Below are positions 1 to 9,073 of a DNA stretch of 9,073 bases, piece after piece (positions within the stretch are counted from its first letter, which is position 1; every line of letters starts with the position of its first letter). This DNA comes from Calditrichota bacterium (GTDB taxonomy: Bacteria; CLD3): assembly GCA_008501735.1 (NCBI GenBank), contig QQUF01000015.1, positions 1-9,073 on the forward strand, written 5' to 3'. The translations under genes were made by a program, and so were the position numbers. A model generated the notes under the pieces. It was given only the letters and a program-made list of their open reading frames with translations. It did no database searches and had not been told where the DNA came from.

Positions 1-3000
1 ATTCAGCAAAGATTGACCACAGAAGCGACCTTTACTCACTTGGAGTTCTTTTTTACCAACTGGTTTGTGGAAAAGTTCCTTTTGAAGGAGATTCTTTGGC
101 AGAAATAGCACTTGCTCACATCAGAACTCCACTAATTTCACCAAAACAGTTTGTTCCCGATTTACCGGAAGTTTTGAACACTGTGATTTCTAAACTTCTC
201 AAGAAAAATCCCAAAGATAGATTCAATTCCTCTCAAGAAGTCTCAAAGATTTTAGATACTTTTCTTAAAGATGGAAAAGTAGAGAATCTTGAGACATTTG
301 GAGATTTTCTTTTAACTCCGGGTTTTGTCGGAAGAAGGAAAGAATTCATAGTGCTGAACAAAATCTTCTCAGAAACAACAAACAAACTAAAAACCATTCT
401 TATTTCAGGAGAACAAGGAGTTGGGAAAACAAAATTATGGAAAGAATTCAGACTTGGTTTACCACAAAACACAACTTTGGTTTTTGAGACAAAGTGCAGA
501 CAAAACTCCAACACTTTTGAATCTTTACAAATAATTCTCACAAAAGCCTTAGAGCAAATCGAAAATCTTTCATCAAAGGAACAAGCAGAGAAAATTGGCA
601 GATTTGGAAGAGATTTGTCAAAGATTCTTCCACAATTAGAAAGCAAACTTTTTTACAAGCATTTGCCTGAACTTCAAACACTTGAAGGCAGTGATTCAGA
701 GCTAAGACTTTTTGAAGCATATACAACTTTTCTGCAAAATATTCACAAAGAGAATCAAACTCTTGTATTCTTTTTTGACGATTTACAGTGGTTAAATGAA
801 CAAAGTTTAAAGTTTCTTGGTTACTTGTCAAGGAGCCTTTCTGGAAGTTCAGTTTTACTCATAGGAACAATAAGAGCTGGAGAAACTGAAAAAATCAAAT
901 CTGAAATTGAGGATTCAGAAATTCTTTCACTCGACAACTTCAACCTTGAAGAGGTAAGAGAATTTTTAACAAAAATGTTTGGAAAAACTGACCCTGTAAA
1001 CACAAGATTTTGTGAAGAGATTTTAAAGCGAACAGGTGGCAATGTTTTGTTTGTTCAAGAGTTGCTGTATCACCTTTTGGAAACCAAGAAACTTAACAAA
1101 AAAGAAGGAGATTGGGATTTAGGGGAAGAAAGTTTCTCCGAGTTAAAGCTCCCAAAATCAATTCAAAGTGTAGTTGGAGAACGTCTTAATTTTCTACCAA
1201 GAGACTTAGTTAAACTTTTGGAACTTGGTTCACTACTTGGAAAATATTTCAATTCTGAAATTGTCTCAGGCATAGTCTCACAAGATGAAAGTAAAATTGA
1301 TTCTAAACTCACAAGTTCAACACTCGAAGGTATTTTAGAGAAGGCGGAATCAGATGTTTTTGAATTTGTAAATGATTCATTTAGAGAGAGTCTTTCAAAT
1401 TCAATCAAACCAACAATCAAGAAATCTTTACACAAGAAGATTGCGACTTACTTAGAGAAGAACTTTGATGAACTAGAAGTTTTGGAAGAACTTGCAAATC
1501 ATTACTTTGAAGCAAATGCTAAGAAAAAGGCTTTGGTATTTTGTCTAAAATTGGGAGATAAGGCTTTTGAAAATAAAGTTTTCCAAAGTGCTTCAAAGCA
1601 TTATCAAAAAGTAATTAATCTGATTGATGATTTGAAACAAGCCAAAAGTAATTTTGAAATTTATAAAAAATATGCTCAGACTTTAGCAAGCACAAATGAA
1701 GTTGACAAATCAGTTGAATTTTACAAAAAAGCAAGTGAACTAATTAGAAATGATGATGAGAAAAAAGTAGAAATATTAATTGGGCTTGGAAGAGTAAAAA
1801 TATCAGCCGCAAAAATGGACGAAGCTGAAAGTCATTTAATTAAATCTTTGGAAATTTGCGAAAAGAACAATTTTTTTAACCAAAAAGTTGATGCACTTTC
1901 TGACTTAGGCGAAATTGAGTTTCAAAAAGGAAATTTCGACAAAACTGCAGAATACGCAAATCAAATTATTGAAATTTCTGAAAAAGAGGATTTGAAGAAA
2001 TTAGTTGGCACTTCTTATGCACTTCTTGGAAATGTCGCAGGTCTTAAAGGGTATTTTGAAGAATCAATTGAATTGCATAAAAAAGACTTGGAAGTTCAGA
2101 ATCTGTACGGAAGTAAAGTTAGAATATTTTGGGCAAAAGCTAGCCTTGCTAATTGTTACACAAGGTTTTACGAGTTTGAAAATTCCAAACCCATTTTGGA
2201 AGAATGTTTAATTTTATCCAAAGAAATTGGTTTCCCAAAAGGTATTTCTTTTGCTTTCGGTTCATTGGGAACAGGTTTTTACAGTAATGGAGAATTTGAA
2301 AAAGCTGTTGAGTATTTAAAAAACGCTGCAGAAATATCTCTCAAAGTCAAAGATAAAAACGGTTACACAAGTGCTAGAATTCAAACAGCGATTACTTACC
2401 ACAAACTCGGAGAATTTGAAAAAAGCGAGGAATTGTTTTTAGAACAACTAAAAGTTACAAAAGAATCTGGTAAAGAAGATTTAACTCTATCAATTTTGCT
2501 TTCCGGATTTATCGATATGCTTACAGATGCAAAAAAATATGAATTTCTTTTAGAAATAGCAGAAGAAGCTATTCCTTTACTTACAAGAATGAAATCCTAT
2601 TTTTATTTGTTAAATGTTTATTTCTATAAAGCAAATGCACTTTTTGAACTTGGTAAGTTTAATCTTTCAGAATCAACTTTTGAGGAAGCCTCTAAATATT
2701 TTGACCAAAAAATAAACATTGTGAATGCGAAACTTAGGTTGAAGATACTCAAACTTAAACTCGACTTTGAATTGCACAACAAAGAAAAGGCAATTAACGA
2801 TTTAATTGAGATGCGAACCGATGATTCGATAACAAAAAATTTGTTTCAATGGGCTGTAGATTTTGAACTTTGTTTGCTTTACTCAAAGAATAATGAAACT
2901 CTTTTCCTTGATAAGAAACTTGACTTTTCCAAATTAAAAAATCAGACTTTAAATATTCTCAGAAAAAAATATGAAATGAAGCCTGAGTTTTTTAATAAAA

Positions 3001-4514
3001 ACAAACTGGAAGTTCTTCAAAGCCTACAATTTCGCTCAACAGAAATTTACCCTGAGCTTATAAACTCACTAATAAATTGGATGAATCCTGAGACTGTTTT
3101 TGAAGAATTACTTAAGTTCTTACAAAAAGAAACAAATGCAAACAGTTGCCAAATTATTTTGCAAAATAAAAATAGGTTTGAAACTTGTGCTGTTTCACAG
3201 AATCTTAAATCTGATGAAATTGAATTTTCAAAATCAGTTCTTCAAAAAGCAATTGATTCAGAAATGCCAACTCTTCTCAAAAATGTTCTTGAAATTCCGG
3301 AGTTAAAAGAAAATCAAAGTGTAATTGGAAAAATCTTCCTTTCAGTTATTGCAGTGCCTTTAAAAGTGGAAAACAAAATTATCGGAGCTTTGTATCTTGA
3401 CAGAACAAAAGTTGAAAAAGGATTCTTTTCAAACATTGATTTAGAAAAAGTAAATACTATTGCAAACTTACTTTCACCTGTCTTACAAAAACAAAATGAA
3501 GCTGTAAAAAGGAAAATCGACTCTGAAATTCAAAATCTCGGAATCTTCATTGGTCGAAGTAAAAAAATGGAAGAAGTTTACTCTGAAATCGAAAATGCTT
3601 CAAAGGTGAATTTCACTGTTTACATTCACGGAGAGACAGGAACGGGAAAAGAACTCGTTGCGAAATCCCTACATAAACTTAGCTCAAGAAGAAAAAATCC
3701 ATTCGTCGCTGTGAACTGTTCTGCAATTCCAAAAGACTTAGCTGAAAGTGAACTTTTTGGTCACGAAAAAGGTGCTTTTAGTGGAGCAACTGCCACAAAA
3801 GAAGGAAAATTTGAACTTGCAAACAACGGAACTCTTTTCCTCGATGAAGTTGCAGAACTCTCTTTGGAGGTTCAATCAAAATTGCTTCGGGTTTTACAGG
3901 AAAAGGAAATTTGGCGAGTTGGTGGAAAAGGATCAAGAAAAATTGACGTTAGAATTGTAGTAGCAACTCACAAAAATCTTAGTGAAGAAGTAGAAAAAGG
4001 AAATTTCCGCGAAGACCTTTTTCACAGGCTTGATGTTTTAAAAATAGAAATTCCGCCACTTCGTGATAGGAAAGAAGACATTCCTTTACTTGCTTATCAT
4101 TTTTTGGAAAAGTATGAAAATGAGATTGACAAAAAAGTTTATGGCTTTTCAAAAGATGCTTTAGACATTCTTAGTCAAAATGAATTCAAAGGAAATGTAA
4201 GAGAGTTAGAAAACGTCATTTTAAAGGCATTAGTCAAGTTTGAAGGCAATCGAGAACTAAGAGCAAATGATTTTAGTTTTGGCAAAAAACTAAAGCCACA
4301 AATTGACATTTCAGGAATCTCGCTAGATTCTTTAATCAAATCAATCTTACCATTTTTAGAGGGCAAGAATTTTGATGAAAAACTTTCGACTTTAGAAAAG
4401 GAAATCTTAGAAGAAACACTTTTCAAAAATAAAGGCAATAAAAGAAAGACTTCTAGAGATTTAAACATTAGTCGTAACAGGTTAGAAAGATTAGTGAGTA
4501 AGTACAATTTGTAA
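1..4514 (+). CDS. Ser/Thr kinase - STAND ATPase - TPR - GAF - sigma-54 activator - Fis HTH fusion (5' partial)
   Basis: The frame is open from position 3 to the TAA at 4512-4514. The TTG at 96 is not the start, because the 31 codons before it encode kinase sequence (HRSDLYSLGVLFYQL, VPFEG, subdomains IX-X); the catalytic HRD and DFG motifs lie outside the window. Counting codon 96-98 as residue 1: the kinase ends near 58 (NPKDRF). A STAND/AAA_16 ATPase spans about 77-340, with Walker A GEQGVGKT 105-112 and Walker B FFFDDLQW ending at 232. TPR-like helices fill about 465-870. A GAF domain lies at about 1000-1131. A sigma-54 AAA+ domain spans about 1151-1380, with Walker A GETGTGKE 1179-1186, GAFSGA 1226-1231, Walker B GTLFLDEV 1245-1252, FREDLFHRLDV 1304-1314 and GNVRELEN 1366-1373. 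A Fis-type HTH ends the protein (about 1430-1472). By family knowledge it is a cytoplasmic bacterial enhancer-binding protein that remodels sigma-54 RNA polymerase. The signal and any kinase targets are unknown. Domain calls are firm; kinase activity cannot be judged. Confidence 0.95.
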   Translation, partial: SAKIDHRSDLYSLGVLFYQLVCGKVPFEGDSLAEIALAHIRTPLISPKQFVPDLPEVLNTVISKLLKKNPKDRFNSSQEVSKILDTFLKDGKVENLETFGDFLLTPGFVGRRKEFIVLNKIFSETTNKLKTILISGEQGVGKTKLWKEFRLGLPQNTTLVFETKCRQNSNTFESLQIILTKALEQIENLSSKEQAEKIGRFGRDLSKILPQLESKLFYKHLPELQTLEGSDSELRLFEAYTTFLQNIHKENQTLVFFFDDLQWLNEQSLKFLGYLSRSLSGSSVLLIGTIRAGETEKIKSEIEDSEILSLDNFNLEEVREFLTKMFGKTDPVNTRFCEEILKRTGGNVLFVQELLYHLLETKKLNKKEGDWDLGEESFSELKLPKSIQSVVGERLNFLPRDLVKLLELGSLLGKYFNSEIVSGIVSQDESKIDSKLTSSTLEGILEKAESDVFEFVNDSFRESLSNSIKPTIKKSLHKKIATYLEKNFDELEVLEELANHYFEANAKKKALVFCLKLGDKAFENKVFQSASKHYQKVINLIDDLKQAKSNFEIYKKYAQTLASTNEVDKSVEFYKKASELIRNDDEKKVEILIGLGRVKISAAKMDEAESHLIKSLEICEKNNFFNQKVDALSDLGEIEFQKGNFDKTAEYANQIIEISEKEDLKKLVGTSYALLGNVAGLKGYFEESIELHKKDLEVQNLYGSKVRIFWAKASLANCYTRFYEFENSKPILEECLILSKEIGFPKGISFAFGSLGTGFYSNGEFEKAVEYLKNAAEISLKVKDKNGYTSARIQTAITYHKLGEFEKSEELFLEQLKVTKESGKEDLTLSILLSGFIDMLTDAKKYEFLLEIAEEAIPLLTRMKSYFYLLNVYFYKANALFELGKFNLSESTFEEASKYFDQKINIVNAKLRLKILKLKLDFELHNKEKAINDLIEMRTDDSITKNLFQWAVDFELCLLYSKNNETLFLDKKLDFSKLKNQTLNILRKKYEMKPEFFNKNKLEVLQSLQFRSTEIYPELINSLINWMNPETVFEELLKFLQKETNANSCQIILQNKNRFETCAVSQNLKSDEIEFSKSVLQKAIDSEMPTLLKNVLEIPELKENQSVIGKIFLSVIAVPLKVENKIIGALYLDRTKVEKGFFSNIDLEKVNTIANLLSPVLQKQNEAVKRKIDSEIQNLGIFIGRSKKMEEVYSEIENASKVNFTVYIHGETGTGKELVAKSLHKLSSRRKNPFVAVNCSAIPKDLAESELFGHEKGAFSGATATKEGKFELANNGTLFLDEVAELSLEVQSKLLRVLQEKEIWRVGGKGSRKIDVRIVVATHKNLSEEVEKGNFREDLFHRLDVLKIEIPPLRDRKEDIPLLAYHFLEKYENEIDKKVYGFSKDALDILSQNEFKGNVRELENVILKALVKFEGNRELRANDFSFGKKLKPQIDISGISLDSLIKSILPFLEGKNFDEKLSTLEKEILEETLFKNKGNKRKTSRDLNISRNRLERLVSKYNL

Positions 4515-4524
4515 TTTTTCCTCT

Positions 4525-4543
4525 TGGCTCTGCAACGGAGCCA
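4525..4543 (+). terminator. Hairpin after the kinase-EBP gene, first of two
   Basis: TGGCTC (4525-4530) pairs with GAGCCA (4538-4543), extended by a T-G wobble, around the loop GCAAC. It starts 11 nt after the stop codon and is followed by TTTAAATTCTT. The stem is compact and half GC, but the T-run is short, so termination is plausible and not certain. Confidence 0.5.
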
Positions 4544-4621
4544 TTTAAATTCTTAAAAAACAATCAATATCAGTTTCTCAGAACTTTGGCTCTGAATCGA
4601 ATCCAATAAACCTCAAAATAT

Positions 4622-4640
4622 TGGCTCTGTTTTAGAGCCA
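4622..4640 (+). terminator. Second hairpin with the same stem sequence
   Basis: TGGCTCT (4622-4628) pairs perfectly with AGAGCCA (4634-4640) around a GTTTT loop, followed by TTATATTTTA. The stem repeats that of the hairpin at 4525-4543, which suggests a back-to-back terminator pair isolating the regulator from the downstream array. Confidence 0.55.
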
Positions 4641-4714
4641 TTATATTTTACAACAACCTTTTACATTTTATCTAATCGATATAAAATCAATTACTTAGCA
4701 GCCTTACAATATAA

Positions 4715-4731
4715 TTGGCATAAGCCTTGAT
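4715..4731 (+). promoter_or_regulatory. Candidate sigma-54 (-24/-12) promoter
   Basis: TTGGCATAAGCCTTGAT matches the sigma-54 pattern TGGCAC-N5-TTGC. It has the GG and the TTG at the correct 12-nt offset (G4717 to G4729), with T for C at the end of the -24 box and A for C at -12. The predicted transcript would start near 4741, about 35 nt before the small ORF at 4776. The adjacent upstream gene encodes a sigma-54 activator, which makes the match more meaningful. A Bacteroidetes-type -7 box (TATGTTTG, 4734-4741) overlaps the same area and is a competing explanation. Confidence 0.35.
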
Positions 4732-4753: not shown

Positions 4754-4790
4754 AAACTAATTTAAAGGTTACAAAATGCCTTACAAAATT
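4754..4790 (+). repeat. Conserved leader/start block, copy 1
   Basis: This 37-nt block matches 8240-8276 at 36 positions; the only difference is C4780 versus A8266. It covers the untranslated leader, a ribosome binding site (AAAGG, 4764-4768) seven nt before the ATG, and the first five codons of the small ORF. Identity stops at 4791, inside the coding sequence. Confidence 0.85.
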
Positions 4791-4922
4791 ATCCAAAGCA
4801 AAAACAAAGTAAATCTCAAAAAAAGAGAAGAATTAATGAAAACAATTTTTCTCACTCTTAGCGGCACTGCTCTGGCAGTTGAAATTCTGAATTCATTAGA
4901 AACCATACTTTTAACCCAATAA
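4776..4922 (+). CDS. Small predicted membrane protein, 48 aa, paralogue of the 8262 gene
   Basis: ATG at 4776 to TAA at 4920-4922 gives 48 residues, beginning MPYKIIQSKN and ending ETILLTQ. The first half is lysine-rich. Residues about 24-46 are hydrophobic and could form one transmembrane helix, interrupted by a glutamate (E36). I do not recognise the family. Support for a real gene: AAAGG at good spacing, a 47-residue paralogue at 8262 that aligns without gaps, and substitutions that are often conservative (E/D, M/I, S/T). The paralogue has Ile where this one has Met21, so the upstream ATG is preferred over the internal one. It ends 19 nt before the secreted propeller gene, so the two are probably co-transcribed. 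A leader peptide role or a membrane partner of the propeller are both open. Confidence 0.75.
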   Translation: MPYKIIQSKNKVNLKKREELMKTIFLTLSGTALAVEILNSLETILLTQ

Positions 4923-4941: not shown

Positions 4942-6444
4942 ATGAAAAACCTTACAAAAATACTTTTGACAATGAGCTTAGGCTTAACACTTGCAAGTAG
5001 CGTTTCGGCACAAAAAATGTATTATTCACTAGAAGGTAGCCAAAGATTAGACAGAGCAGATATTGATGGCTCAAATACTGAAACTTTGGTTTCAACAGGA
5101 GAAAATAACTACGGAACTGAAGTTGATTTGACAAACTCTAAAGTTTATTGGTGTACTTCAGACTTCACGAATTCAAAAATTAGAAGAGCAGATTTAGACG
5201 GTTCTAATGCAGAAATTATTGTCAATATTAACAATAACTTTTTTTTCCGTGATGTAGCAATAGATTTAACAAACTCAAAAGTCTATTGGACTGACGGTCT
5301 ATTCGGTACAGGTGGAAAGATTCAAAGAGCGAATTTAGATGGTTCAAGTGTTGAAGATATTTTGACAAACCTTGATAGCCCAAGATCTATTGATATTGAT
5401 GCAACAAACTCTAAAATATATTGGCAAGAAGACGGTTCTGCTAATAGAATAAGAAGAGCAGATTTAGATGGGTCTAATATCGAAAATTTAGTAACAGGGT
5501 TAGATAGTCCTGATGGTATTGCAGTAGATGTAACAAATTCTAAAATATATTGGAGTGAAGGTTCTGGTGGAAGTGCGACGATTAAGAAAGCTAATTTAGA
5601 TGGTTCAAGTATTACAACCTTAATAACAAACGGTGCAAATGGACTCAATCGACCTAGAGGGATAGATATAGATGAGACTAATTCAAAAATGTATTTTGCA
5701 GATAGAAATGGAAATAAAATTCAAAGATCGGATTTAGATGGCTCAAATGTGGAAGATTTAGTAACATCTGGAATTAGTTCACCTTTCGGAGTTTCACTTG
5801 GGGTTACTGATACTCCACTTGCAGTTGAACTTGATTCATTCACAACTCGTCAAATTGAAAACGCTATTCAACTTTTTTGGTCAACTGCTTCTGAAAAAGA
5901 TAATGAAGGATTCAACGTTTACAGAAAAACAGGAAATGGCTTCTACACTCAAATTGCTTCTTACAAAGGAAATTCTGAACTTCTCGGTGCTTTAAATTCT
6001 TCAACAAGCAACAATTACTCTTTCACTGACAATTCTGAACTTCGTAACGGTGAAACTTACACTTACTACATTTCTGATATTGAAACAAACGGACTCGAAA
6101 CTAAACACGAAGAACAAGCACAAAGTGTTAGATTCACACTCAATGAAGAAATTGCTCAAACAAAACTTGACTACGTTTTAGCACAAAATTTCCCAAATCC
6201 TTTCAATCCAAGCACAAAGATTAATTTCCAAATTGCAAAAGAACAAGATGTTAAACTTGAAGTTTACAACTTAAAAGGTGAACTTGTAAAAGAGCTTGTG
6301 AATGAAAAAATGAACAAAGGTTCACACTCTGCAAAATGGAACGGAACAGACACCTTTGGAAACCAAGTTTCAAGTGGAACTTACTTCTACAAAATTTCAG
6401 CTGGTACTTTCATACAAACTAACAAAATGATTTTACTAAAATAA
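4942..6444 (+). CDS. Secreted YWTD beta-propeller protein A with T9SS type A sorting domain
   Basis: 500 residues. Residues 1-23 are a Sec signal peptide (MKNLTKILLTMSLGLTLASS, then VSA before Q24). About 24-288 hold six YWTD/LDL-receptor class B-like repeats. The blade strands are MYYSL, VYWCT, VYWTD, IYWQE, IYWSE and MYFAD, each followed by a DLDGSN-type loop whose DG falls near 42, 86, 133, 176, 220 and 266 (spacing 43-47). Six copies fit a closed six-bladed propeller. About 291-400 resemble an FnIII domain (GFNVYRK, TYTYYISDIETNG). About 409-500 are a Por-type T9SS sorting tail (NFPNPFNPSTKINF, SSGTYFYKI, KMILLK). By family knowledge the tail is removed at the outer membrane and the protein is attached or released. 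The ligand is unknown. It follows the 4776 small gene by 19 nt and ends before a hairpin at 6463. Closest relative here: B at 6582. Confidence 0.93.
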   Translation: MKNLTKILLTMSLGLTLASSVSAQKMYYSLEGSQRLDRADIDGSNTETLVSTGENNYGTEVDLTNSKVYWCTSDFTNSKIRRADLDGSNAEIIVNINNNFFFRDVAIDLTNSKVYWTDGLFGTGGKIQRANLDGSSVEDILTNLDSPRSIDIDATNSKIYWQEDGSANRIRRADLDGSNIENLVTGLDSPDGIAVDVTNSKIYWSEGSGGSATIKKANLDGSSITTLITNGANGLNRPRGIDIDETNSKMYFADRNGNKIQRSDLDGSNVEDLVTSGISSPFGVSLGVTDTPLAVELDSFTTRQIENAIQLFWSTASEKDNEGFNVYRKTGNGFYTQIASYKGNSELLGALNSSTSNNYSFTDNSELRNGETYTYYISDIETNGLETKHEEQAQSVRFTLNEEIAQTKLDYVLAQNFPNPFNPSTKINFQIAKEQDVKLEVYNLKGELVKELVNEKMNKGSHSAKWNGTDTFGNQVSSGTYFYKISAGTFIQTNKMILLK

Positions 6445-6581: not shown

Positions 6582-8084
6582 ATGAAAAATCTTACAAAAA
6601 CTCTATTGACTTTAAGCTTAGGCTTAACATTTGCCACAAATGCTTCAGCACAAAAAATGTATATAGCTGATGGAACTGCTAATAATATTAAACGTTCTGA
6701 TTTAGATGGGTCAAATATCTCAACATTAGTTTCAGCCGGAGTTACAAATCCTTATTCAATTGATGTAGGTATTACAATTTCCAAAATTTATTGGGGTGAT
6801 ATTGATGACGACAACATCAAACGTTCTGATTTAGACGGTTCAAATGTTGAGACAATAGTAACAACAACTGAATTAGCAACAGGAATGGGTACAATCGTAG
6901 ATTTTGCAATTGATGAAGCAAATGCAAAATTGTATTGGGTTGATCTTTCAGGTGGTGGGTTCATAAGTAGAAGCAATTTAGATGGTTCAAGCCCAGAAAA
7001 TCTTCTTACAAGTGCAAACGGTTTATCTACTCCAATGGGAATTGATATAGATGCAACTAATTCAAAATTATATTGGATTGATGACGGTACGAATAAAATT
7101 CAAAAATCCGATTTGGATGGTTCTAATATTGAAGATGTTCTAACTACTGGTATTTCATCACCACAAAATCTTGTTTTAGATGTCGCAAATTCACACATTT
7201 ATTGGACAGAAATTTCTGATGACGAAATTAAGCGTGTAGATTTTGATGGAACAAATGTTACAGTAATTAATACTGATATACATCTCCCATATAAAATTGA
7301 TATTGATTACAATAATTCTAAATTGGTTTGTACATCTTATGGACCCAATCTCATTAGTAGAATTGATTTAGACGGTTCAAATCATGAAGTAATCATAACT
7401 GGTGCAGATGGAGTTCTAGAAGGAAGACAAGTAGCTTTTGATTTTAGCGACACTCCTCTTGCGGTAGAACTTGATTCTTTCACTGCTCTTCAGATTGAAA
7501 ATTCAATCCAACTTAACTGGACTACGGCTTCTGAAACTGAAAACGAAGGTTTCAATGTTTATAGAAGAATTGGAAATGGCTTTTACACTCAAATTGCTTC
7601 TTACATAGGTAACTCTGAACTTCTCGGTGCTTTAAACTCATCAGTTTCAAACAACTACACATTTGTTGACAATTCTGAACTCCGTAATGGTGATACTTAC
7701 ACTTACTACATTTCTGATGTTGAAACTAACGGACTTGAAACTAAGCACGAAAAAATGGCTCAAACTGTAAAGTTTACACTAAGCGAAGAAATTGCACAAA
7801 GCAAACTCGACTACGTTTTAGCACAAAACTTCCCGAATCCATTCAACCCAAACACAACAATTAATTTCCAAATTGCAAAAGAGCAAAGTGTAAAACTCGA
7901 AGTTTACAATCTCAAAGGTGAATTAGTTAAAGAACTCGTGAATGAAAAAATGAACAGAGGTTCACACTCTGCTAACTGGAACGGAACAGATAGTTTTTAT
8001 AACCAAGTTTCAAGTGGAACTTACTTCTACAAAATTTCAGCAGGAACTTTCACACAAACTAACAAAATGATTTTACTCAAATAA
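6582..8084 (+). CDS. Secreted YWTD beta-propeller protein B with T9SS type A sorting domain
   Basis: 500 residues, the same length as A. The signal peptide covers about 1-23 (ends NASA before Q24). The propeller, about 24-288, has YWTD-like strands MYIAD, IYWGD, LYWVD, LYWID, IYWTE and a degenerate sixth, LVCTS (248-252). The DG loops are DLDGSN (41, 84), NLDGSS (133), DLDGSN (178), DFDGTN (221) and DLDGSN (263). The sixth blade thus keeps its loop but has lost the aromatic YW pair. About 291-400 are FnIII-like and about 409-500 are the T9SS sorting tail with NFPNPFNP and final KMILLK. From residue 290 on it aligns with A without gaps; I count about 29 differences in 211 residues (about 86% identity), while the propellers differ much more. 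Unlike A and C it has no small ORF in front. Probably an exported surface protein with a different binding face from A; the ligand is unknown. Confidence 0.93.
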   Translation: MKNLTKTLLTLSLGLTFATNASAQKMYIADGTANNIKRSDLDGSNISTLVSAGVTNPYSIDVGITISKIYWGDIDDDNIKRSDLDGSNVETIVTTTELATGMGTIVDFAIDEANAKLYWVDLSGGGFISRSNLDGSSPENLLTSANGLSTPMGIDIDATNSKLYWIDDGTNKIQKSDLDGSNIEDVLTTGISSPQNLVLDVANSHIYWTEISDDEIKRVDFDGTNVTVINTDIHLPYKIDIDYNNSKLVCTSYGPNLISRIDLDGSNHEVIITGADGVLEGRQVAFDFSDTPLAVELDSFTALQIENSIQLNWTTASETENEGFNVYRRIGNGFYTQIASYIGNSELLGALNSSVSNNYTFVDNSELRNGDTYTYYISDVETNGLETKHEKMAQTVKFTLSEEIAQSKLDYVLAQNFPNPFNPNTTINFQIAKEQSVKLEVYNLKGELVKELVNEKMNRGSHSANWNGTDSFYNQVSSGTYFYKISAGTFTQTNKMILLK

Positions 8085-8138: not shown

Positions 8139-8184
8139 ACTTTGTGAAAATCAAGTTGCTGTTTTAAGTTTTTAACAGTGTTTC

Positions 8185-8239: not shown

Positions 8240-8276
8240 AAACTAATTTAAAGGTTACAAAATGCATTACAAAATT
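8240..8276 (+). repeat. Conserved leader/start block, copy 2
   Basis: This block matches 4754-4790 at 36 of 37 positions. It contains AAAGG at 8250-8254 and the ATG of the small ORF at 8262. Upstream of 8240 the two loci no longer align clearly, so the conserved unit begins inside the 5' leader. Confidence 0.85.
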
Positions 8277-8405
8277 TATTCTGAAATTGATACTCCACAG
8301 CATACAAAAAGAGATGAACTGATAAAAACTACATTAATCGTTCTTGGTGGCTCAGCTCTAACAATTTTTTTATTCAACACATTAGAAACTTTAATTTTAA
8401 ACTAA
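8262..8405 (+). CDS. Small predicted membrane protein, 47 aa, paralogue of the 4776 gene
   Basis: ATG at 8262 to TAA at 8403-8405 gives 47 residues, beginning MHYKIYSEID and ending FNTLETLILN. A charged stretch (HTKRDELIKT) is followed by a hydrophobic segment, about 24-46 (LIVLGGSALTIFLF), fitting one transmembrane helix. Against the 4776 protein I count 19 identical residues in 47, clustered in YKI, KR-E-L-KT, L-G-AL and N-LET. The protein core is thus conserved although its DNA has diverged, which argues that it is translated and under selection. AAAGG lies 7 nt before the ATG. It ends 22 nt before propeller gene C, the same arrangement as at the A locus. The family is not recognised. The hydrophobic segment lacks the glutamate found in the first copy, so membrane insertion looks better supported here. 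Confidence 0.75.
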   Translation: MHYKIYSEIDTPQHTKRDELIKTTLIVLGGSALTIFLFNTLETLILN

Positions 8406-8427: not shown

Positions 8428-9073
8428 ATGCAAACACTTACAAAAACACTTTTAACTTTAAGCTTAGGCTTAACAATTGTGTCAAGTGCCTCAGCAGAAA
8501 AAATGTATTGGACCGATCTTGGGGCAACTAAAATCCAACGTGCAAATTTAGATGGGTCTAATTCTGAAGACTTAGTTACCGGATTAAATCAACCGGTTCT
8601 TATTGCTTTAGACTTAACAAATTCAAAAATGTATTGGCCTGATGCTGGAACAGATAAAATCCAACGAGCAGATTTAGATGGCTCTAATGTAGAAGATTTA
8701 GTGACCGGTTTAGATCAACCTATTGGAATAACATTAGATTTAGCTAATTCAAAAATGTATTGGACTGATAATGGAACAAGTAAAATCCAACGAGCAAATT
8801 TAGATGGTTCTAATGTGGAAGATTTAGTTACTACCGGAATAAGTAGCCCTTCCGGAATAGCGTTAGATGTTACTAATTCAAAAATGTATTGGACTGATGA
8901 AGGGACAGATAAAATCCAACGAGCAGATTTAGATGGCTCTAATGTGGAAGATTTAGTTACTACCGGAATTAGTGGCACTTTTGGAATTGCATTAGATTTA
9001 ACTAATTCAAAAGTGTATTGGGCTGATAATTCAGCACCTAAAATCCAACGAGCAGATTTAGATGGTTCTAATG
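8428..9073 (+). CDS. Secreted YWTD beta-propeller protein C (3' partial)
   Basis: The frame is open from ATG at 8428 to the window end (215 codons plus one base). AAAGGA lies 7 nt before the ATG. The signal peptide is MQTLTKTLLTLSLGLTIVSS, then ASA before E24, close to those of A and B. The rest is a very regular run of YWTD repeats: MYWTD, MYWPD, MYWTD, MYWTD, VYWAD, each followed after 8-9 residues by IQRA(N/D)LDGSN. Repeat length is 42 or 43 residues. Five repeats are visible and the sequence continues, so six or more are likely. By analogy with A and B an FnIII-like domain and T9SS tail should follow, but they are outside the window. It is preceded at 22 nt by the 8262 small gene. The blades are far more alike than in A or B, suggesting recent repeat duplication or homogenisation. 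Confidence 0.93.
   Translation, partial: MQTLTKTLLTLSLGLTIVSSASAEKMYWTDLGATKIQRANLDGSNSEDLVTGLNQPVLIALDLTNSKMYWPDAGTDKIQRADLDGSNVEDLVTGLDQPIGITLDLANSKMYWTDNGTSKIQRANLDGSNVEDLVTTGISSPSGIALDVTNSKMYWTDEGTDKIQRADLDGSNVEDLVTTGISGTFGIALDLTNSKVYWADNSAPKIQRADLDGSN
8503..9073 (+). repeat. Tandem 126/129-bp repeats encoding propeller blades
   Basis: The anchor AAAATCCAACG starts at 8530, 8656, 8782, 8911 and 9040, giving periods of 126, 126, 129 and 129 bp. The (A/G)TGTATTGG anchor shows the same periods (8503, 8629, 8755, 8884, 9013). Identity is strong at DNA level: the segments from 8651 and 8906 share about 40 nt with one change. Such repeats can expand, contract or be mis-assembled. Confidence 0.9.

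What the first reader, a model, noticed from the sequence alone, without database searches (positions are those of the whole stretch)
4776..4922. Unrecognised small membrane protein family paired with secreted propellers
A 48-aa ORF precedes propeller A and a 47-aa homologue precedes propeller C, with the same short gaps (19 and 22 nt). They align without gaps with about 40% identity (19 of 47 by hand). Conservation concentrates in KR-E-L-KT, L-G-AL and N-LET, and changes are conservative. This pattern fits a translated protein under selection, not a spacer. Roles could include an inner-membrane partner for export, a regulator peptide, or a toxin-like peptide.
Basis: partly seen in the sequence, partly recalled or inferred. 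Interest (0 to 1): 0.65.

Follow-up and report, generated by a model that had tools for sequence, protein, structure and literature searches.

The report
Small membrane proteins beside secreted propellers
The short gene is real: it belongs to a previously unnamed family of 42-48 residue membrane proteins, ten copies in this one bacterial genome, usually produced from the same switchable operon as a large secreted propeller protein, but what the little protein does is still unproven.

Summary
In detail: a 48-aa ORF (4776-4922) and a 47-aa ORF (8262-8405), 19/47 identical without gaps, sit 19 and 22 nt before two type IX secretion (T9SS) cargo genes. Genome-wide profile searches find ten copies (nine distinct sequences, none broken) and none above chance in 385 other genomes. 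Substitutions preserve the amino-acid sequence (0 of 2000 column shuffles reach the observed score). Each copy has one predicted transmembrane helix. Seven copies precede a T9SS propeller cargo by 19-26 nt; two follow a cargo; one overlaps an 85-aa secreted ORF. A homology-free scan of 82 secreted-type gene starts found eight with a small ORF just upstream; six are this family. Six copies lie directly, and a seventh one ORF, behind a -24/-12 (sigma-54) promoter; all lie on contigs with a large kinase-AAA-TPR-GAF-sigma54 activator gene. It is thus a lineage-restricted, probably single-pass membrane microprotein built into sigma-54-controlled T9SS cargo modules. I favour an inner-membrane accessory to biogenesis of the co-made cargo (inferred); feedback on the activator, a translational leader and a toxin-like peptide remain open. 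Most cargo genes lack it, so it is no general export factor. SecE resemblance was tested and not supported.

The parts
4776..4922 (+). Microprotein copy 1, 48 aa, charged N-terminus plus one predicted TM helix
8262..8405 (+). Microprotein copy 2, 47 aa
4764..4768 (+). Shine-Dalgarno-like AAAGG of copy 1, inside a 25-nt leader identical in both copies (AAACTAATTTAAAGGTTACAAAATG)
8250..8254 (+). Shine-Dalgarno-like AAAGG of copy 2
4715..4730 (+). -24/-12 (sigma-54 type) promoter TTGGCATAAGCCTTGA
4524..4645 (+). Three copies of a 25-nt repeat, two of them with the full palindrome TGGCTCT-N5-AGAGCCA (or GGAGCCA): candidate upstream activator sites; the one at 4525-4543 could also be the terminator of the activator gene
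3..4514 (+). Kinase(end)-AAA-TPR-GAF-sigma54-activator-HTH protein, 5' end cut by the contig edge; presumed regulator
4942..6444 (+). Cargo A: signal peptide, LDL-receptor class B propeller, T9SS type A sorting domain
6582..8084 (+). Cargo B: same architecture, no microprotein ORF before it
8428..9073 (+). Cargo C: propeller, cut by the contig end
8144..8175 (+). Leader element GTGAAAA...CTGTTTTAAGTTTTT otherwise found upstream of kinase-activator genes; no -24/-12 promoter is seen before copy 2

Best explanation
Shown by sequence: a family of 42-48 residue proteins under amino-acid-level selection, with an M-x-Y-K start, a K/R-E-L motif, one predicted transmembrane helix with a conserved small-residue patch (G-x-A), and an N-x-L-E tail. 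They are encoded with T9SS propeller cargo in modules that have a kinase-AAA-TPR-GAF-sigma54 activator gene on the same contig and, in most cases, a -24/-12 promoter. Inferred: when the activator fires, RNA polymerase-sigma54 makes one transcript for microprotein and cargo; the microprotein inserts in the inner membrane with its N-terminus in the cytoplasm and binds a membrane partner through the small-residue face of the helix. Most likely it assists or tunes biogenesis (Sec passage or hand-over to the T9SS) of the particular cargo made with it, rather than being a general export factor.
For: Ten copies, none broken. Coding-type substitution: z about 6 over six diverged copies, 0 of 2000 shuffles; dN below dS in all non-identical pairs where both could be estimated. 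Hydropathy and a confident single helix, mean pLDDT 88. Seven copies end 19-26 nt before a T9SS cargo start, each with a Shine-Dalgarno-like site. A homology-free scan for small ORFs before secreted-type genes returned mainly this family, 6 of 8. On C38 the unit promoter-microprotein-cargo is repeated four times, so gene number follows cargo number. Promoter pattern TTGGCAYN5TTGA: 28 sites in the genome against 3 for the reversed control; five directly head a microprotein and a sixth heads the 85-aa ORF that overlaps one; a variant precedes the C47 copy. rpoN is present. Cargo are T9SS type A propellers.
Against: At least 150 T9SS sorting domains in the genome and only seven cargo genes with a copy in front; several activator-cargo modules with the same promoter go straight into cargo. 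Three copies do not precede cargo. No experiment shows translation, membrane location or an export role. Copy 2 in the window lacks a -24/-12 promoter. Tandem duplication of whole units explains part of the one-to-one pairing.
Confidence: 0.42

Rival explanations
1. Feedback regulator: the sigma-54-induced membrane peptide returns a signal to the kinase-activator of its own module, as MgrB does to PhoQ.
For: Every contig with a copy also carries a kinase-sigma54 activator gene of this type. One copy is in an activator module with no T9SS cargo behind it (C38:22353). The activators and the peptides share an MPYK start. MgrB is a 47-aa inner-membrane peptide induced by the regulator it inhibits (PMC2789325).
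Against: The activators show no transmembrane segment (best 19-residue hydropathy about 1.4), so contact with a membrane peptide is not obvious. Six copies on one contig is unusual for a feedback device. Most activator modules lack a copy.
Confidence: 0.23
2. Translational leader: the ORF mainly sets cargo translation or brings the polysome to the membrane, with little function of the free protein.
For: Short constant gap of 19-26 nt to the cargo start in seven copies; hydrophobic product.
Against: Specific residues, not only hydrophobicity, are kept across 40% identity. Three copies lie after a cargo or a small secreted ORF and are followed by terminator-like hairpins, so they lead nothing.
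Confidence: 0.15
3. Toxin-like or membrane-stress peptide in multicopy clusters.
For: Small, hydrophobic, multicopy, seen in one genome only.
Against: Linked to cargo and promoters rather than to an antisense RNA; antisense promoter-like sites near it are close to shuffle level. Toxicity untested.
Confidence: 0.08
4. SecE-derived accessory translocon subunit.
For: The 47-aa copy matches Pfam SecE at E 0.022 over KRDELIKTTLIVLGGSALTIFLF.
Against: One of eight members only and below the curated cut-off; profile comparison with 12 SecE gives probability 5.8%, and 2% of shuffled profiles do as well; the W-P hinge and amphipathic helix are absent; the genome has a normal SecE.
Confidence: 0.05
5. 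Non-coding spacer or chance ORF.
For: AT-rich DNA yields many short ORFs.
Against: Ten intact homologues and a strong coding signature.
Confidence: 0.03

Closest known systems
MgrB (47-aa membrane peptide acting on PhoQ)
   Same: Size, single TM helix, made under control of the regulator of its circuit
   Different: No sequence relation shown; here the neighbour is a soluble-looking kinase-sigma54 activator and the operon partner is secreted cargo
SecE (PF00584)
   Same: Short single-TM protein with a charged (K/R)xEL stretch just before the helix
   Different: No WP hinge or amphipathic helix; statistical support fails
PEP-CTERM systems with a sigma-54 response regulator
   Same: Sorted extracellular proteins linked to a sigma-54 activator; the window activator matches PEP_resp_reg among many related models (PMC1569441 seen as search hit)
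   Different: T9SS sorting domain, no PEP-CTERM signal; regulator is a kinase-AAA-TPR-GAF fusion
AcrZ-type accessory small membrane proteins (own knowledge)
   Same: About 50 aa, one helix, tunes a larger membrane partner
   Different: Partner unknown here; no sequence relation tested

Membership tests
Small bitopic membrane proteins (a kind, not a homologous family) | Under about 50 aa, one predicted TM helix, conserved coding sequence | tested here: met
Small bitopic membrane proteins (a kind, not a homologous family) | Translated and membrane-located in the cell | not testable with these tools
   needs Ribo-seq or tagging
SecE (PF00584) | Score over curated cut-off 22.7 bits | tested here: not met
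   15.1 bits, one of eight members
SecE (PF00584) | Amphipathic helix and WP hinge before the TM helix | tested here: not met
   absent in all copies
Sigma-54 regulon member | -24/-12 promoter upstream | tested here: met
   five copies direct, one direct with a variant (C47), one via the 85-aa ORF; not seen for window 8262, C38:6924, C1
Sigma-54 regulon member | rpoN and activator genes in the genome | tested here: met
Sigma-54 regulon member | Transcription depends on RpoN and the adjacent activator | not testable with these tools
   needs RNA or reporter data
MgrB-like feedback peptide | Match to a named family model | tested here: not met
   no Pfam or NCBIfam model matched apart from the weak SecE hit
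MgrB-like feedback peptide | Inhibits its own regulator | not testable with these tools
   genetics needed
Type I toxin | Antisense RNA and toxicity | tested here: inconclusive
   antisense promoter-like sites only near shuffle level; toxicity untested

The most novel reading that the evidence does not exclude
A cargo-dedicated inner-membrane microprotein that gates or assists passage of individual T9SS cargo, switched on together with that cargo by a private kinase-sigma54 activator: a cargo-specific export subunit that I know of for no T9SS.
Probability: 0.15. Interest if true: 0.7.

Novelty: new member of a known kind. Interest (0 to 1): 0.42.

Why it matters
It adds a clean, selected microprotein family with a testable partner set (its operon cargo, Sec, T9SS core, kinase-activator), and shows T9SS propeller genes in this lineage organised as repeated sigma-54 modules with an activator gene and upstream palindromes. 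It also shows that short ORFs before secreted genes can be real genes that annotation omits.

Tried and rejected
SecE homology: weak hit followed with 12 SecE sequences and shuffles, not supported. PHROG hits are single-member and weak. PDB profile hits are potassium-channel helices at E 0.24, chance. Relatives: 40 then 385 genomes; best outside match E 4e-4 over part of the profile with a stop in a 773-aa frame, i.e. background. Viral contigs and genome-contig scans with the 48-mer found none, but these use exact 8-residue patterns and so see close relatives only. C5:7186 and other weak own-genome hits lie in other genes or contain stops. Papers: no report linking T9SS cargo to such a peptide was found in the open library.

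Full report
Observation. The window is a whole contig (C13) of a 4.14-Mb genome, 100% complete by the tool's estimate. NusG places it nearest an unnamed bacterium (isolate SJ803, 73%) and then Calditrichota at about 50-55%. Both share a 25-nt stretch up to and including the ATG.

Family. Searching the genome with the 48-mer and then with profiles gives ten copies, nine distinct sequences, 42-48 aa: C13:4776 and 8262; C38:4473, 6924, 7596, 10082, 12581 (the last two identical) and 22353; C1:98918 (minus); C47:8777 (minus). None has a stop or frameshift. Consensus: M-P-Y-K, variable linker, T-K-R-E-E-L-x-K, helix with L-x-G-x-A-L, then L-N-x-L-E-x-x-I. In 385 other genomes, which include the one held genome of another genus of the same family and seven of the rest of its class, no match rises above background, although matches to the cargo protein (mostly its C-terminal part) occur in all nine nearest genomes. 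As far as the held data go, the family is restricted to this genome or its genus.

Coding evidence. Pairwise dN is below dS wherever both are estimable and the pair is not identical: 0.47/0.81 for the window pair, 0.42/1.15 for 8262 against C1, 0.50/1.58 for 8262 against C38:7596; dS is often near saturation. Shuffling alignment columns never reached the observed in-frame score in 2000 trials, for the window pair, a trio or a set of six; the forward out-of-frame readings carry 12-30 stops. One antisense frame also scores above shuffles, an expected mirror of the codon pattern, but it carries four stops. The alignment was made at protein level, which favours the frame somewhat; the window pair needs no gaps, so there the bias is small.

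Protein. Hydropathy gives one helix in each copy after an N-terminus that is neutral to strongly positive; the predicted model of copy 1 is one long confident helix. Membrane insertion and N-in topology are inferred; the approximate insertion energy is least favourable for the 4776 copy.

Context. Seven copies end 19-26 nt before a gene with signal peptide and T9SS type A sorting domain: LDL-receptor-type propellers on C13 and C47, FG-GAP propellers on C38. Two (C38:6924, C1) follow a cargo gene and are themselves followed by terminator-like hairpins. One (C38:22353) overlaps by TAATG an 85-aa ORF with a signal-peptide-like start. A scan that used no homology, asking for any 25-80 aa ORF with a ribosome-binding-like site ending within 60 nt of a secreted-type gene, returned 8 among 82 gene starts; 6 are this family.

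Regulation. TTGGCAY-N5-TTGA occurs 28 times in the genome against 3 for the reversed pattern. Five of the 28 lie about 60-103 nt before a microprotein (C13:4715, C38:4382, 7493, 9979, 12478) and C38:22028 precedes the 85-aa ORF; C47 has the variant TTGGCACAGAGCTTGT. rpoN and 37 sigma-54 activator domains are present, many in proteins of 1500-1800 aa; the two examined have kinase, AAA, TPR and GAF parts. Palindromic repeats stand upstream of the promoters and differ from module to module (window TGGCTCT-N5-AGAGCCA, C47 AATAGTC-N4-GACTATT, C38 end GTAAC-N6-GTTACGTT, C38 middle TGTACTGATT-N3-AGTACA): candidate private activator sites, though the one at 4525-4543 may be a terminator. Several modules have the same promoter leading directly into cargo without a microprotein (C47_16k, C10_71k), so the microprotein is optional.

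Function. The evidence shows a selected, probably membrane-bound microprotein co-regulated with cargo. It does not show what it does. I rank a cargo-linked biogenesis accessory first because unit duplication keeps one copy per cargo on C38 and because position before the cargo is the commonest layout. Feedback on the activator is second, with MgrB as the precedent (PMC2789325). A leader role is weakened by the three copies that lead nothing. SecE descent was tested and fails.

Verdict. Real and unrecognised, but narrow in distribution and without a demonstrated mechanism. Confidence that it is a translated, selected protein family is about 0.95, that it is a membrane protein about 0.85, that it belongs to sigma-54-controlled cargo modules about 0.85; the particular function is the weak step, which is why the full explanation is given 0.42. 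I score interest 0.42 and call it a new member of a known kind, small membrane proteins in regulated operons.

Noticed in passing
window 8144-8175: The region before copy 2 carries the leader element (GTGAAAA...CTGTTTTAAGTTTTT) otherwise found before kinase-activator genes, as if a kinase gene had been lost there by recombination.
   Followed up: partly
L046:10599, L048 (minus), L226, L122, L179 (kinase starts): Kinase-activator proteins begin MPYK[IT]ISKIASGTFG or close to it, sharing the MPYK start of the microproteins; ancestry or coincidence not decided.
   Followed up: partly
L046:10097-10354: 85-aa ORF with signal-peptide-like start behind a -24/-12 promoter, overlapping a microprotein copy; no Pfam match.
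   Followed up: partly
genome G000: At least 150 T9SS type A sorting domains and about 20 large sigma-54 activator proteins of 1500-1800 aa, about half of them next to secreted cargo genes.
   Followed up: partly
L045:10082 and L045:12581: Two microprotein genes and at least 160 nt upstream of each are identical while the cargo behind them differ near the start of the mature protein.
   Followed up: no
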